From the NCBI GenBank assembly GCA_016871115.1, contig VFZP01000014.1:1-34068 (forward strand): a stretch of 34,068 nt of DNA. The letters are read 5' to 3'. This DNA is from Acidobacteriota bacterium (GTDB lineage Bacteria > Acidobacteriota > Terriglobia > Bryobacterales > Bryobacteraceae). Made by a program: the position numbers and the translations under genes. Positions 15,151 to 21,102 of the stretch are shown here, piece after piece. The notes under the pieces are model-generated. The model had not been told where the DNA came from. It did not search any database and was given only the letters and a program-made list of their open reading frames with translations. How positions within the stretch are numbered: the first letter of the stretch is position 1; every line of letters begins with the position of its first letter.

Positions 15151-15456
15151 TTGCGGGGCGCCCTGGACCTGCTTGTTTTAAAGACGCTCGCGCCTGCGCC
15201 GCTTCACGGCTACGGCATCGCGCAGCGCATCCTGATTACGTCGCGTGAAGTGTTGGACGTGCAGCAGGGCTCGCTCGACCCCGCCCTCCACCGCCTGGAG
15301 CGCAAGGGCCTGCTCTCCTCCGAGTGGAAAGAATTGGAAAACGGCCGCATGGCGAAGTTCTACGCGCTGACCGCGTTCGGCCAGCAGCAACTCGCCGACG
15401 AACTGGAGCAATGGCGCAACTACTCGCGCGCCATCGGCTGGGTGTTGGAGGGCTAA
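15151..15456 (+). CDS. PadR-family transcriptional regulator, N-terminally shortened
   Basis: A 101-residue winged-helix regulator: GALDLLVLKTLAPAPLHGYG, then IAQRI, LDVQQGSLDPALHRLERKGL with the DNA-recognition region, and FYALTAFGQQQLADELEQW. Homologs normally have about 10 residues before (Q)GTLDLL. Here a TAG (15143-15145) blocks upstream extension, so the only start is TTG 15151 next to the operator, with no Shine-Dalgarno. Either the message is leaderless or a short deletion removed the -10, ribosome-binding site and first codons. The ADOP pseudogene follows 5 bp after the stop, the usual pairing in which PadR represses the permease operon. Given the decay of the permease, this regulator may also be non-functional. 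Confidence 0.75.
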   Translation: MRGALDLLVLKTLAPAPLHGYGIAQRILITSREVLDVQQGSLDPALHRLERKGLLSSEWKELENGRMAKFYALTAFGQQQLADELEQWRNYSRAIGWVLEG

Positions 15457-15461
15457 CCGCG

Positions 15462-17993
15462 ATGCGCTGGCCGTGGCACAAAGCAGAGACTGAACTCGAC
15501 CGCGAGCTCGAATTCCGCCTCGATGAACTGGCCGCGGCGTTCGAGCGCCAGGGCCTCAGTCACAAGGAAGCCCGCGCAAAGGCGCGGCGCGAGTTCGGCG
15601 GCGTCGATCGTGCCAAAGAGCAGTGCCGCGATGAACGCCGCTAGCAGCCGCTCGCCACGCTGGGGCAGGAGGTGCGCTTCGGTTTACGCATGATGGGCCG
15701 CGCGCCGCTCTTCACCGCCGCCGCCGTGCTTTCGCTCGCGCTGGGCATCGGGGCCAACACCGCCATCCTGTCGCTGATGCAAGGGCTGTTGTGGCGTACG
15801 CTCGATTCACTGGCGCCGGAGCAGATCTCCGAAGTGCTGTGGGAGGCCAAGGCCGCGCCCTAGGGGCTGGACGACCTGATGAGCGGCAACATGTTCCGCG
15901 ACGGCGCGGGCTTGGCCGCGGATTACTTCAGCGTGCGCGCTTTTGAGACGCTGCGAGACCGCGCCGCCGGGCGCGCTGAGATTGCCGCGCATCGAAACCC
16001 GGAAGATGTGAGCGTCAGCTCTTCGCGCGGCGCCGCCGTGGTAGTGACGTACCAATTCTGGGAGTCGCACCTCGGCTCAGACCCGGCTATTGTGGGCCGC
16101 GCCCTGCGCATCAACGACCGCAGCTACACCGCAGCGGGCGTGCTCCAGCGCAGTTTTACGGGCATACGGCTGGGCGACACCACTGACCTGTACACTTCGC
16201 TATGCAAGGCGCCGGACTTGCTTGAGACACGTAGCTGGCTGGCGCGGCATTGGGACCGGCCGCGGTCTTGGTTTCTGCACATGATCGCGCGCCGCTCGCC
16301 GGAGATGACCGCCGAAGCCATGGCGCGTTCGCTCGATCCGGTGTTTGCCTCCACGCGGGAGGGCACACTCAAAGAGCCCGCCACCGCGCCGCGTCTGCGC
16401 TTCCAAGACGGCTCGCACGGGCTCGGCGGCCTGCGCCGCGAGTTCGGCAATCCATTCTCGGTGCTGCTCACGCTGGTGACCTTGGTGTTGCTGATTGCCT
16501 GTGCCAATATCGCCAATCTCCTGCTGGCTCGCGCCGGCGCACGCAGGCAGGAGGTATCGATTCGCGCGTCGCTCGGCGGCGGCCGCGCGCGGCTGGTGCG
16601 CCAGTTCGTCACCAGGAGTTTGATGCTGGCGCTGGCGGGCGGTTTGCTGAGCATCGCCGTGGCGCGCCCGGTAGCGCAGGCGGCGTTGACGTTGTTGCCG
16701 GCTGAGATCGGCGCATTCCGGCTGGACCTTTCCTTCGACACTCGCGCGGCCGGGTACACCCTCACGCTGACGGCGCTGACGCGCTGCTGTTCGGGCTCTA
16801 CCCCACGTTCCGCGTGACGCGCGGGGATCTCGGAGCGGGTTCGCTATCCATGGCGCCGGGCCGCTTGCTGATCGCCGCCCAGGTCTCCATCGGCGTGTTG
16901 TTGCTTGCCGCGGCGTTCGCCTTCACCGGGCGCCTTGCCGATCTGGCCAACCGCGACGCCGGCATAGCGCGCAGCCGGCTGTTGCTGTTCGATGTCAAAC
17001 CCGGGCAATCCGGTTACGAGGGTCCGTGGCTTCGGCAGTTCTCGCTCGACCTTGAACGCAAGCTCGGCGAGGCCCCGGCGTGGAAGCGGTGGCGCTGGCA
17101 CGGGTCCGGCCTCTGAGCGGCGGCGGGTGGGGTGAGAGAATCCAGTTCGACGGCCAGCCCAAGGCGATCCCGGTCTTGGTGAACGCCGTCTCATCCGGCC
17201 ATTTCAGCGCCATGGGGATTGACATCACCGCCGGGCACGGGCTCACTCCGCGGGACTCGCGCGACCAGGCTTACACAGCAGTGGTCAGCGAGGAAATGGC
17301 GTGGCAACTCGGCTCACATGCGCTCGGCGCCCGGTTTCGCGACGGCGACAGGAAGTTCGAGGTAGTGGGCATCGCGCGCCGCGCACGGCACGACTCGATG
17401 GCGCGCCAGTCCGCGCCCGTGCTCTACCTGCCCCATCCGCTTGAGCACGACGCCATGACGGTTGTGGTCCGCACGCGCACCGCTCCGGCGGGGATGATCG
17501 AACCCGTCCGCCGTACCGTGGCTGAGCTCGACCCTGCCTTGCCCATCGTCGGCGCGCTCACGATGGATCAGCAGATCGGCGAAACGCTACGCCGCGAGCG
17601 CCTGTTTGCGTGGCTGTGCGGCTGCTTCGGCGTGCTGGCTCTCACGCTGTGCGCGATCGGCCTCTACGGCGTGCTCTCGTACGCCACGGCGCGGCGTGCG
17701 CGCGAGATTGGCATCCGCATGGCGCTCGGTGCAACGCCCCAAACGGTGCTGCGCATGGTGCTCGGCGAGGGCTCGCGGTCGCCCGCGCCGGCCTTGCCAT
17801 CGGTGCACCGATGGCGTGGTTCCTCGCGCGGCGCTATGTGGATCACGAGCGCTTCGGCCTGGAAGGGTCGCTCGAAGCCGCGCCGCTGGGATGGGCCGTC
17901 GCGGTGCTGGCGCTCGCTGCACTCATTGCGGTGTTGCTGCCTGCGTGGCGCGCTTCGTCGGCCGATCCAGCCCGGGTGCTGCGCGAAAACTAG
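15462..17993 (+). pseudogene. ADOP-type (FtsX/MacB-like) ABC permease, degraded
   Basis: A continuous homology of about 840 residues is spread over several frames. 15462-16790 contains the cytoplasmic N-terminal ADOP helix region (ELDRELEFRLDELAAAFERQ), the first membrane segment (LFTAAAVLSLALGIGANTAI), a MacB-like periplasmic domain and LLIACANIANLLLARAGARR. It carries in-frame TAGs at 15642-15644 and 15861-15863. Near 16790 the frame shifts (RVTRGDL), near 17090 it shifts again (RVRPLSGGGW), and near 17775 a third time, ending AWRASSADPARVLREN. ADOP permeases are an Acidobacteriota family fused at the N-terminus to a PadR-linked domain and presumed to be MacB-type exporters. Five lesions make a functional product very unlikely. 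Confidence 0.88.
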
Positions 17994-18111
17994 AGTGGTC
18001 TCCCTCCTCGCCACAGCTTCTTCCGCGAAAGCGATGTAACGTTCCGTCGCTGGCTTGCACTACCTGTTCGAATCGCCTCCAAGTATCGATTCGCAAAAGG
18101 AGATCGCCAAA

Positions 18112-19533
18112 ATGCCCAATCCCCGTGCGCGTGGATCAAGAAGAACCGCCCAGCCAGCCGAAGCATCCACTGGCGCCGTGACGCCCCTTACCGGCGAATT
18201 CACCGGCAAGTATTTGGTATTGCTGCCCGAGGACTGCGGCAAGAGCAGCCTGGAAGCCATCAAACAGGCCTCGGGCCTGAAGACGGCGTGTAGCGCAGCC
18301 GATTTCACAGGCGCTGCGGTGTCCATGTCACAGGCTGAAGGCGCCGAGGTGCTCTACTTGGACAAACTGAACGTTGCCGTGGTGGATTCCGACCCCTCGC
18401 AGGTGGGCGGGCTCGAATCCGCGGCCGCGTCTGACTCCAAGATCCTGGCCGTTGAACCAGAGCGCATCATCTATACCCTCGGCGGCGGACTTGACGAGCA
18501 AAGCCTGCAGTATTTGCGCGGCTACAAAGACGCGGTGAACCACCTCTACGAAACGCTGGCCACCCGTGAGGGTGAAGCCTCGCTGGAAGACGAAGACGTG
18601 ATGGCCGCGATGCTGGCCAACACCGCGCAATTCACGTTGGGTTTGCGGGCGACCCTCGTCAACCGGTCCCGCTTCGCCGGCCGCGGCATTCGCGTGGCGG
18701 TGCTCGACACCGGCTTCGACCTCAATCATCCGGACTATCCGGGCCGCGTGGTCAGCAGCCAGTCGTTCATCAACGGGCAGGCGGTTGACGACCTCAACGG
18801 CCATGGCACGCACTGCATCGGCAGCGCGCTCGGCCCGCAGCGCCCCGTCACCGGTGTGCGCCGCTATGGCTGTGCGTTTGCGGCGGAGATCTTTGCCGGC
18901 AAGGTGCTCAGCAATGCCGGGAGCGGCGGGGACACCGGGATCCTGGTCGGTATCAACTGGGCCATCACCAACAAGTGCCGCGTGATTCCCATGTCGCTCG
19001 GCGCGCCGGTGCAGGTAGGCGAGGGGCCTTCACCTATCTATGAGAACGTGGCGCAGCGCACCCTACGTTCCAATCCTGGCAAACTGATCATCGCGGCGGC
19101 GGGCAACGACAGCAGCCGACCCGGCCAGATCGCTCCGGTGAGCCGCCCGGCCAACTGCCCGTCGATCATGGCGGTGGCAGCGGTAGATTCGAATTTCGGC
19201 ATCGCGCAATTCTCCAACGGCAGACGCAATCCGAATGGCGGCGGCGTCGACATCGCCGGGCCGGGTGTGGCCGTCTTCTCCTCCGCACCGGATCCGTTCC
19301 CGGCATCGGTTCAGCCCACCGGACCCGGGCGTCCCTGGCCGCCGCGCCATCACACCATCAGCGGCACCAGCATGGCTACGCCGCACGTGGCGGGCATCGC
19401 CGCCATGTGGCTTGAGTCGCGAGGTGTGAACACGCCGGCCACGGCGCTTTGGCAACTGCTCACGGGCAATGCCCGCCGGTTGAATCTGCCTAGCCGCGAC
19501 GTGGGAGCCGGGCTTGTCCAGGCCCCGATCTAG
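18112..19533 (+). CDS. S8 subtilisin-like serine protease without a signal peptide
   Basis: A 473-residue subtilase with the full triad: Asp199 in VAVLDTGFD, His231 in NGHGTH, Ser420 in ISGTSMATPHVAG, and oxyanion Asn332 in AAAGND. Residues 30-125 (GKYLVLLPEDCGKSSLEAIK ... ILAVEPERIIYTL) look like an I9-type propeptide with an insertion. A largely helical linker follows. The N-terminus (MPNPRARGSRRTAQ) is basic, without a hydrophobic segment, so secretion by Sec or Tat is not evident and the enzyme may act in the cytoplasm. ATG 18112 has AGGAG nine bases upstream, which favours it over TTG 18055. The small gene at 19612 follows after 78 bp and may encode its inhibitor or folding partner. Confidence 0.88.
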   Translation: MPNPRARGSRRTAQPAEASTGAVTPLTGEFTGKYLVLLPEDCGKSSLEAIKQASGLKTACSAADFTGAAVSMSQAEGAEVLYLDKLNVAVVDSDPSQVGGLESAAASDSKILAVEPERIIYTLGGGLDEQSLQYLRGYKDAVNHLYETLATREGEASLEDEDVMAAMLANTAQFTLGLRATLVNRSRFAGRGIRVAVLDTGFDLNHPDYPGRVVSSQSFINGQAVDDLNGHGTHCIGSALGPQRPVTGVRRYGCAFAAEIFAGKVLSNAGSGGDTGILVGINWAITNKCRVIPMSLGAPVQVGEGPSPIYENVAQRTLRSNPGKLIIAAAGNDSSRPGQIAPVSRPANCPSIMAVAAVDSNFGIAQFSNGRRNPNGGGVDIAGPGVAVFSSAPDPFPASVQPTGPGRPWPPRHHTISGTSMATPHVAGIAAMWLESRGVNTPATALWQLLTGNARRLNLPSRDVGAGLVQAPI

Positions 19534-19611
19534 CACGACAAGCGCGCCGCCGGGCCCGCGGCAGAGGCAGTCGCAGGCCCGGCGGCTATACTTGTGGTTG
19601 AAGGCTTGACC

Positions 19612-19872
19612 ATGCCCAAGAAAACGGGGAAGAGCAAGCCGGAGCCGCCAGTGGGCGTGTCCGTATTCCTGAAAGAGAGCCACCTGGGCGCCACGCAAGC
19701 CGCTGGAGTCCAACGCGAGTTGAAGGCCAAGGGCTTCACTCTCAGAGAAAACCTGGAAGCGATTGGCGTGCTCACCGGCTCGGCGCCGGCCGCCGCCTTG
19801 GAAGCGCTGGAATCTGTTCCTGGCGCCGAGAAGGTGGAAAAAGAGCGTACCGACTACCGCACGCAGCAGTAG
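19612..19872 (+). CDS. Small I9-like protein, putative subtilase inhibitor/chaperone
   Basis: An 86-residue protein with no signal peptide. After a Lys-rich start (MPKKTGKSKPEPP) comes a single alpha-beta domain: VGVSVFLKESH, a helix containing AAGVQRELKAKGF, IGVLTGSAPAAALEALESVP and GAEKVEKE. The pattern of a strand, a helix with L-K-x-x-G, a strand (GVLTG), ALxxLxxVPG and V-E-x-E is that of subtilase I9 propeptides and stand-alone inhibitors such as yeast IB2 or fungal POIA1. The protease upstream has its own propeptide-like region, so this could be a separate inhibitor or regulator. GAAGG-like GAAGG lies 7 bases before the ATG. The assignment rests on pattern, not alignment. Confidence 0.6.
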   Translation: MPKKTGKSKPEPPVGVSVFLKESHLGATQAAGVQRELKAKGFTLRENLEAIGVLTGSAPAAALEALESVPGAEKVEKERTDYRTQQ

Positions 19873-19878
19873 CGCCCT

Positions 19879-21102
19879 TCAGGGGCGAGCGGCCGCCCCC
19901 GGCTCTTCGTCAAACCCTGTGCCGCGGCTCAGCACGAACCACAACGCGTAGCCCAGCACCGGGCACGATGCCGACACCCAGAACGCCGTCCCATAGTCCT
20001 GCCTATCGAGCAGCCGGCCGATGCGAGGCATCAGCAGTGCCACAAATGCTCCCCAGGAACCTGCGCCGAGGCCCGCGATCAGACTAGCGTTGCGGCGCGA
20101 GAAGGCGCGCGTGGCGTAGCTGATGGGCGCAATCACAAAACCAGCGGCCACGAACATCGCAAAGAACAGGCAGAACATCACGACTGCCGCGCTTGCGCCC
20201 GGCTGGCCGATCGACGGCACGGCGGCGAGCGGCAGACTCAACAGCGTGGCCGCGCCCATCAGCCCCCGATAGACAGCCAGCGGCCGCGCGGAGCGGCGGA
20301 GCGAAGTGTCCGTCAACCAGCCCCACACAAAGTAGCCCGCTTCCCAACCGAGCGGCGGAATCCAGAGCAAAGCGGCGACTTCGCTCTGGCTCAGCTTCAT
20401 CGCGCGATTCAGAAACAACGACGATTGATAGAGCACAAACGCCAGCGGGAAGGCGCCCAGCGCATAGGCGGCCATGAAGGCCCAGACGCGCCGGTCACCC
20501 CAGGCGATCGCGGCGTCTTCGGTGGCGCGCGACGCGGTGCTTTGCATGTCGGCGCGCTGGCTGACGAAATACCAGAGGATGAGCCACGCCGCACCCACCG
20601 CGCCGGTAAACCAGAACGCCCCGCGCCAGCCCCACGCCGCCGCCACAGGCCCGACGATGAGCGGCGTCACCACCGCGCCCAGCGACCCGCCGCTGTAGGA
20701 AATGGCAATGCCGCGCGAGCACAGGTGCGGCGGGAGCGATTGCACGGCCGCGCGCAAGCCGGCGGGGAACGTCGCGCCTTCGCCGAACCCCAGCGCCGCG
20801 CGCGCAATCGCAAACGTCCAGAAGCCCTGCGCGAAGGCGTGCGCGGTGGAGGCCAGCGTCCAGAAGGCGACCGACATCGTCATGCCGCGAGGCAGGCCGA
20901 TGCGGTCGAGCAACTTGCCCCACACCGGGTTGCCGATCATGTAGGCCGTGGAAAAGGTCGAGATGATCCAGCCGTAGTCTTCCACGGTCAGCCCCGTCTC
21001 TTTCAAGACGGTAGGCGCGAGGATGGCGAGGGTGGTGCGGTCTATGTAACTGATCAGCGAGACCAGCAACATCGTTACCGTGGGGACCCAGAGGCGAAAC
21101 AA
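19879..21102 (-). CDS. MFS transporter, anion:cation symporter-like
   Basis: A 407-residue, 12-helix major facilitator. The N-terminal helix reads LLVSLISYIDRTTLAILAP, and the loop 2-3 signature is GKLLDRIGLPRGM. The segment RAALGFGEGATFPAGLRAAV is typical of the ACS (hexuronate, galactonate, tartrate) subfamily (family pattern R-x-x-L-G-x-x-E-x-x-x-x-P). It starts at TTG 21102; the next ATG is inside the first helix, so TTG is more plausible. It is convergent with the small I9-like gene (6-bp gap) and divergent from the aas-like gene. The likely substrate is an organic or sugar acid, by family only. Confidence 0.82.
   Translation of the reverse strand: MFRLWVPTVTMLLVSLISYIDRTTLAILAPTVLKETGLTVEDYGWIISTFSTAYMIGNPVWGKLLDRIGLPRGMTMSVAFWTLASTAHAFAQGFWTFAIARAALGFGEGATFPAGLRAAVQSLPPHLCSRGIAISYSGGSLGAVVTPLIVGPVAAAWGWRGAFWFTGAVGAAWLILWYFVSQRADMQSTASRATEDAAIAWGDRRVWAFMAAYALGAFPLAFVLYQSSLFLNRAMKLSQSEVAALLWIPPLGWEAGYFVWGWLTDTSLRRSARPLAVYRGLMGAATLLSLPLAAVPSIGQPGASAAVVMFCLFFAMFVAAGFVIAPISYATRAFSRRNASLIAGLGAGSWGAFVALLMPRIGRLLDRQDYGTAFWVSASCPVLGYALWFVLSRGTGFDEEPGAAARP

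What the first reader, a model, noticed from the sequence alone, without database searches (positions are those of the whole stretch)
18112..19872. Subtilase without signal peptide plus a separate I9-like small protein
A complete Asp/His/Ser triad protease (Asp199, His231, Ser420) lacks a secretion signal and is followed by an 86-residue protein whose fold pattern mirrors subtilase propeptides. The protease appears to carry its own propeptide-like region, so the second protein looks like a dedicated inhibitor in trans. A cytoplasmic protease-inhibitor pair could form a regulated proteolysis or defence-type module.
Basis: partly seen in the sequence, partly recalled or inferred. Interest (0 to 1): 0.6.

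Follow-up and report, generated by a model that had tools for sequence, protein, structure and literature searches.

The report
Bacterial cytoplasmic protease with paired inhibitor
A protein-cutting enzyme that apparently stays inside the bacterial cell is encoded next to a tiny protein shaped like the enzyme's own safety catch, and this two-gene pair recurs in distantly related bacteria, so the tiny protein is probably a dedicated off-switch for the enzyme.

Summary
Window 18112-19533 encodes a 473-aa S8A subtilase (Asp199/His231/Asn332/Ser420) without a signal peptide and with its own I9-type propeptide (residues about 30-122). Window 19612-19872 encodes an 86-aa protein whose AlphaFold2 model has the propeptide topology; the 25 best Foldseek matches in the PDB are all subtilisin propeptides. 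No Pfam or NCBIfam model claims it.

Adjacency is conserved: a comparable 64-116-aa ORF directly follows the protease in 42 of 45 distinct loci from about eight phyla, and a profile for it finds nothing in 134 control loci with other S8 proteases. The two proteins diverge in step (Mantel r 0.78, 37 pairs, 0 of 2000 permutations). No third gene recurs.

Most likely this is an intracellular subtilase with a dedicated I9 inhibitor in trans. In propeptide register the inhibitor tail either stops about where P1 would sit or continues as a Pro-Pro-rich segment just beyond it, as if built to bind without being cut. Inhibition itself is inferred; no complex was modelled. The defence idea gained no support. 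Stand-alone I9 inhibitors are known from fungi, plants and protozoa, so this is a new, apparently unnamed bacterial variant of a known kind.

The parts
18112..19533 (+). Intracellular-type S8A subtilase, 473 aa; disordered N-terminus 1-29, cis I9-type propeptide about 30-122, low-confidence helical linker about 123-172, catalytic domain about 173-473 (D199, H231, N332, S420)
18199..18477 (+). Region of the cis propeptide (residues 30-122) with VEPERIIYTL in the register of a subtilisin propeptide C-terminus
   Evidence: AF2 topology; alignment to pro-subtilisins; register counts
19534..19611 (+). 78-nt gap between protease stop and inhibitor start holding an 11-bp G+C-rich inverted repeat (strong predicted RNA hairpin, no U-run after it)
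   Evidence: -48.9 kcal/mol, z -3.78; comparison
19612..19872 (+). 86-aa stand-alone I9-like protein, proposed trans inhibitor of the subtilase; core residues 14-77, tail VEKERTDYRTQQ
   Evidence: conserved adjacency

Best explanation
A two-gene intracellular proteolysis module. The subtilase is made without a signal peptide, folds with its own cis I9 propeptide and (inferred) cuts itself after it. The downstream gene makes a free copy of the propeptide fold that (inferred) binds the substrate cleft of the mature enzyme in the same orientation as a propeptide: its beta sheet on the two surface helices, capped by Glu/Asp residues, and its C-terminal tail through the active site. The tail is (inferred) built to resist cleavage: it either ends where the P1 residue would lie, like a cleaved propeptide, or carries a Pro-Pro-rich segment at about P1'/P2'. 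The inhibitor is thus a persistent latch that keeps a potentially harmful cytoplasmic protease silent until it is removed, outnumbered or degraded. Shown: genes, predicted folds, pairing, co-divergence, tail pattern. Inferred: binding, inhibition, release trigger, substrate.
For: Fold: the 25 best Foldseek PDB matches of the small protein are all subtilisin propeptides or pro-subtilisins (best E 2e-3, TM by target up to 0.76); POIA1, a stand-alone I9 inhibitor solved in complex with subtilisin, aligns at Z 8.6. Sequence: small-protein profile against the family's cis propeptides gives P 5.5e-6, six decoy comparisons 0.055 or worse; 5 of the 8 weak hits of the small-protein profile in 297 genomes fall just before the catalytic domain of other subtilases; Pfam I9 is the most frequent, sub-threshold, match (7 of 42 members). 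Pairing: 42 of 45 distinct loci; gap median 40 nt, 8 of 37 overlap, 33 of 37 at most 100 nt; Mantel r 0.78, 0 of 2000 permutations, 37 pairs. Tail: counting from the propeptide capping Glu, Pro at +9 in 25 of 33 and at +10 in 26 of 32 tails long enough; 8 of 42 end at +7/+8, 7 of those 8 in Ile/Leu; cis propeptides have L/I/V/M at +8 in 24 of 38. BPN' capping residues Glu69/Asp71 are from PMC6993865 (passages); its prosegment is 77 residues long (1spb title), which puts P1 at +8.
Against: No complex was modelled and nothing was assayed. The ferredoxin-like fold is common: ribosomal protein S6, NapD and others reach Z 8-9, and no Foldseek E-value is below 0.001. The window's own tail (RTQQ, ending at +10) fits neither main tail class, so the Pro argument does not cover it. 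3 of 45 loci lack an adjacent partner (L029; G395; G375, whose copy lies about 9 kb away) and four genomes hold a small-protein copy with no family protease next to it. Co-divergence is also expected of any two linked genes. A cis propeptide already gives inhibition, so a second I9 protein is not obviously needed.
Confidence: 0.72

Rival explanations
1. External chaperone: the small protein helps the protease fold or mature, like the ORF2 partner of Aeromonas sobria serine protease ASP, and inhibition is secondary or absent.
For: Same gene order (protease then partner); propeptide folds are foldases as well as inhibitors; stable 1:1 pairing. PMC9549277 (passages) states that ASP is the exception that lacks an N-terminal propeptide; that ORF2 is its external chaperone is recalled.
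Against: ASP has no propeptide, whereas the window protease has a cis I9 propeptide that docks like that of pro-subtilisin E in the model and its relatives align over it, so a second foldase is not needed. The Pro-rich or P1-terminated tails look like active-site blocking.
Confidence: 0.13
2. The pair is a toxin-antitoxin-like or anti-phage module: the inhibitor is lost or removed on infection or stress and the protease kills or arrests the cell.
For: Two-gene unit with potentially harmful activity, patchy distribution, presence on plasmids in the records examined and one IMG/VR contig; one Vibrio plasmid copy lies near DndB, a cytosine methyltransferase and a DUF262 protein.
Against: No recurrent defence neighbour or third partner; PADLOC gives only generic subtilase and weak IetS matches to the catalytic domain; gene order (effector first) and the stable folded inhibitor are not typical of antitoxins (recalled).
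Confidence: 0.08
3. The small protein is only a ferredoxin-like protein (for example a regulatory or metal-binding subunit) that binds the protease elsewhere as cofactor or adaptor.
For: Many unrelated ferredoxin-like domains match at Z about 8; sub-threshold Pfam matches include DAHP_snth_FXD and NapD.
Against: The first 25 Foldseek ranks are all propeptides; propeptide-style VE.E/D capping positions kept (E/D at 0 in 28 of 42, at +2 in 30 of 42); no conserved Cys or His for metal in the alignments.
Confidence: 0.05

Closest known systems
Stand-alone I9 inhibitors: POIA1 (Pleurotus), yeast proteinase B inhibitor, Arabidopsis SPI-1, Toxoplasma MIC5, Plasmodium SUB1-ProM
   Same: Small proteins with the subtilisin propeptide fold, encoded apart from the enzyme; SUB1-ProM is also encoded next to subtilase genes (PMC6993865, passages). 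POIA1 matches the model at Z 8.6.
   Different: Those named there are eukaryotic. Here the partner is bacterial, the protease has no signal peptide, the two genes form a tight apparent operon across phyla, and many tails extend past P1 with Pro-Pro.
Bacillus Isp1 and its inhibitor IPI
   Same: Intracellular bacterial subtilisin with a reported protein inhibitor (PMC3901451, abstract).
   Different: IPI has an Ig-like all-beta fold, not the I9 fold; its intracellular role is itself questioned in that abstract.
Intracellular subtilisins (ISPs) with LIPY/F pro-peptide
   Same: No signal peptide; inhibition across the active site, with a proline that holds the scissile bond away from the serine (PMC6220982, passages), the same trick proposed here for the Pro-rich tail.
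   Different: ISPs carry a 16-20-residue pro-peptide in place of the pro-domain; this family has a full cis I9 propeptide plus a trans I9 protein.
Aeromonas sobria serine protease ASP and its external chaperone ORF2
   Same: Subtilase followed by a gene for a partner protein (recalled).
   Different: ASP lacks a propeptide (PMC9549277, passages) and is secreted (abstract of PMC5638518 in search listing).

Membership tests
Peptidase family S8A (subtilases) | Asp/His/Ser triad in DTG, HGTH, GTSMA motifs with oxyanion Asn | tested here: met
   invariant in 38 aligned family members; Z 43 to pro-subtilisin E
[quoted passage not shown]
   AF2; Foldseek ranks 1-25 all propeptides; predicted model, not a solved structure
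Inhibitor family I9 (propeptide-type inhibitors) | Match to the curated Pfam model PF05922 above its cut-off | tested here: not met
   0 families for the window protein; 7 of 42 members match at E<1, best 0.055
Inhibitor family I9 (propeptide-type inhibitors) | Inhibits a subtilase by binding the active-site cleft | not testable with these tools
   needs assay or complex structure; tail register only suggestive
Intracellular subtilisins (ISP, LIPY/F type) | Short 16-20-residue pro-peptide with LIPY/F motif in place of a pro-domain | tested here: not met
   about 90-residue I9-type propeptide; no LIPY/F in the N-terminus
Intracellular subtilisins (ISP, LIPY/F type) | No secretion signal | tested here: met
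   (hydropathy only; no signal-peptide predictor was available)
ASP/ORF2-type protease with external chaperone | Protease lacks a cis propeptide | tested here: not met
   cis I9 domain present
Known anti-phage defence systems (PADLOC) | System-specific match or conserved defence partners | tested here: not met
   generic 'subtilase' and weak IetS only; no recurrent partner

The most novel reading that the evidence does not exclude
A bacterial kill-switch class: cytoplasmic subtilases held by a dedicated trans I9 latch whose Pro-Pro tail cannot be cut, so that the protease is unleashed only when the latch is removed by a signal (stress, phage or loss of a plasmid), acting as a protease-based toxin-antitoxin or abortive response spread across phyla.
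Probability: 0.12. Interest if true: 0.78.

Novelty: new variant of a known kind. Interest (0 to 1): 0.52.

Why it matters
The stand-alone I9 inhibitors named in the literature seen here are eukaryotic; a widespread bacterial family paired one-to-one with intracellular subtilases would show that this way of controlling a protease is far more general, and would give annotators a name and function for small 'hypothetical proteins' found downstream of many 'S8 family serine peptidases'. It makes a specific mechanism testable: how a propeptide becomes a lasting inhibitor, either by stopping at P1 or by a proline-protected tail. The pairs are also a ready source of matched protease-inhibitor tools.

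Tried and rejected
Co-folding: the two genes share a frame, so a TAG-read-through translation and alignments with it were prepared, but no such chain was folded. In one search the small proteins aligned to the wrong place, and the prediction tool returns no coordinates or PAE, so a fused model could not have shown an interface.

Sequence search of the small protein against the PDB gave nothing useful. The I9 Pfam model in the own genome hit four other places but not this gene. NCBIfam matches of the small family looked random. No terminator-like site on the + strand and no sigma-70-like promoter was found in 17900-20000.

Third partner: clusters of neighbouring ORFs beyond the protease were, judged by eye, antisense shadows of it or generic enzymes. 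Defence. Phages: 14 of 50,697 records matched, none covering 80% of the query.

Recalled idea that NCBI misnames the small protein: one literature search, 0 papers; the plasmid records call it hypothetical protein.

Absence from print rests on searches of open-licence PMC papers only; subscription papers and preprints were not covered.

Tree: labels scatter across phyla but few branches are well supported (12 of 35 starred), so transfer is suggested, not shown; the tree tool put L022, whose record title names the actinomycete Rhodococcus, under Cyanobacteriota, which I disregard.

Rows dropped before the 42-of-45 count: G178/L013 (protease match stops at residue 273 of 473), and L031 and L032, which are the same contigs as G143 and G058.

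Full report
OBSERVATION. The window (contig C14 of genome G000) encodes on the + strand a 473-residue protein at 18112-19533 and an 86-residue protein at 19612-19872, with stop codons included. The first is an S8 protease by Pfam (E 2.7e-39), with Asp199, His231, Asn332 and Ser420 at the expected motifs; all four are invariant in 38 aligned family members. The second matches nothing in Pfam or NCBIfam. The genome belongs to the same family as G058, whose contig has the length of a record titled Bryobacteraceae bacterium, so the host is an acidobacterium of that kind (inference).

THE PROTEASE. An AlphaFold2 model built on 28 family sequences has mean pLDDT 84.1 and pTM 0.83. [quoted passage not shown] In the structural comparison the ten best rows are all subtilases solved with their pro-part, nine aligned over residues 32-473 and one over 26-473 (for example 3whi, Z 43.4, 335 residues, 2.7 A). 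There is no signal-peptide-like segment before it: in 21 family members the best 11-residue hydropathy mean is 1.35 or lower, with four too short to score, against 1.5 or more in 29 of 29 control subtilases. The control stretch was longer, which favours high values. Intracellular location is thus likely but rests on hydropathy alone.

THE SMALL PROTEIN. The AlphaFold2 model built on 32 sequences has mean pLDDT 86.4, pTM 0.70 and topology E14-20 H27-39 E43-48 E53-58 H60-67 E72-77. Foldseek ranks 1 to 25 in the PDB are all subtilisin propeptides or pro-subtilisins (E 2e-3 to 1.4e-2). The second aligner gives Z up to 9.5 for propeptides and 8.6 for POIA1 bound to subtilisin BPN'; ribosomal S6 and NapD reach Z 8-9 as well, because the ferredoxin-like fold is common. 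Three sequence-level results point the same way and do not rely on structure prediction. First, profile-profile comparison with the family's own cis propeptides gives P 5.5e-6, against 0.055 or worse for six decoy comparisons. Second, of the eight weak hits (E 3.6e-5 to 0.009) of the small-protein profile in 297 genomes, five lie just in front of the catalytic domain of other subtilases, that is in their propeptides (L108, L110, L111, L112, L115). Third, Pfam I9 is the most frequent sub-threshold match (7 of 42 members, best E 0.055). The gene is under purifying selection (dN/dS 0.114, 0.267 and 0.087 in three pairs; a fourth was saturated).

CONSERVED PAIRING. In 200 genomes of the order, 8 had a protease relative at E<=1e-40. 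Seven could be read through, and all seven have a 74-86-residue ORF directly downstream; the eighth (L013) is broken and was dropped. A profile built from these seven small proteins was then applied to loci fetched only by the protease. Among the 25 family loci of the public genome scan (L018-L042) it found the partner in 21; three more (L039, L040, L042) were recognised by eye, and one (L029) has none. Two of the 25 repeat order-level loci, so 22 of 23 are new. In 297 genomes of the phylum the protease profile at E<=1e-100 finds 8; apart from the window's own, 5 of 7 have the adjacent partner, G375 has it about 9 kb away and G395 has none. All seven plasmid records examined, of 21 with a match, have a 74-87-residue hypothetical protein directly downstream. 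Six of these match the first profile at E<=0.02 and the seventh (L118) was placed by position and by the later profile of which it is a member. One IMG/VR contig also has the pair. In all: 7/7 + 22/23 + 5/7 + 7/7 + 1/1 = 42 of 45 distinct loci, in about eight phyla going by record titles. Controls: none of 55 other S8 loci in the genome scan and none of 79 in the viral scan has a hit. The gene distance has a median of 40 nt; 8 of 37 overlap and 33 of 37 are within 100 nt. The two proteins diverge in step: Mantel r 0.78 over 37 pairs, highest of 2000 permutations 0.37. No third gene recurs around the 40 loci surveyed (protease tree). Against the pairing, small-protein copies without a family protease beside them exist in four genomes (G375, G364, G322, G295).

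TAIL REGISTER. In subtilisin BPN' the propeptide residues Glu69 and Asp71 cap two enzyme helices (PMC6993865, passages), and the prosegment has 77 residues (title of 1spb), so P1 is eight residues after Glu69. Counted from the equivalent residue (Glu76 in the window's small protein), E or D stands at 0 in 28 of 42 and at +2 in 30 of 42 small proteins. In the cis propeptides Pro stands at +1 in 33 of 38, E/D at +2 in 33 of 38, and L/I/V/M at +8 in 24 of 38, a plausible self-cleavage site. The trans proteins differ. Eight of 42 end at +7 or +8, seven of these in Ile or Leu, like a cleaved propeptide. Most of the others continue with Pro at +9 (25 of 33) and +10 (26 of 32), often to a Gln at +15 (18 of 29). 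The register may be off by one. In intracellular subtilisins a LIPY/F pro-peptide blocks the site with a proline that keeps the scissile bond away from the serine (PMC6220982, passages), so a proline-protected tail is a credible route from propeptide to lasting inhibitor. The window's own tail, RTQQ ending at +10, fits neither class cleanly; the Rhizobium plasmid copy L117 ends in the same four letters.

INTERPRETATION. The evidence supports a dedicated trans I9 inhibitor of an intracellular subtilase (confidence 0.72). Fold, pairing and co-divergence are shown at the level of prediction and comparison; binding, inhibition, release and substrate are inferred. An external chaperone is less likely because a cis propeptide is present. 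The defence reading found no support.

NOVELTY. PMC6993865 (passages) lists three well-characterised stand-alone I9 proteins (fungal, yeast, plant) and adds TgMIC5 and SUB1-ProM; all are eukaryotic. The bacterial intracellular inhibitor IPI has an Ig-like fold (PMC3901451, abstract). Seven searches of open-licence papers showed no bacterial stand-alone I9 family paired with a subtilase; papers outside that library were not seen. I file it as a new variant of a known kind.

Noticed in passing
window 19546-19586; L007, L010, L020, L023, L027, L116, L117 gaps: Strong RNA hairpin in the protease-inhibitor gap without a U-run after it (up to 17-bp stem in L027). z<=-3 in 8 of 21 gaps of 37 nt or more against 12 of 78 control same-strand gaps (Fisher p 0.027); it could shift the inhibitor:protease ratio.
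   Followed up: partly
L101/L123 (G375), L102/L124 (G364), L104 (G322), L105/L125 (G295): Small I9-like ORFs with no family protease beside them; three are in two-contig 3.7-Mb genomes of one genus. Possible stand-alone inhibitors of other subtilases.
   Followed up: partly
window 15324-18039: MacB/FtsX-type permease downstream of a PadR regulator (15151-15456) is split over several ORFs in different frames, so it is frameshifted or the contig has errors there.
   Followed up: partly
L118 (Vibrio alfacsensis plasmid pSEA2): Here the pair lies among DndB, a DNA cytosine methyltransferase and a DUF262 protein, a possible defence-rich stretch not seen in the other annotated plasmid loci.
   Followed up: no
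P0001 residues 123-172 (window 18478-18627): About 50 residues of predicted but low-confidence helix lie between the cis propeptide and the catalytic domain; role unknown.
   Followed up: no
L214 892-1191 (-) and 1175-1414 (-): Downstream of the G375 protease lie a fragment ending like the protease C-terminus and, by eye, a HicB-like ORF, suggesting a decayed duplicate.
   Followed up: no
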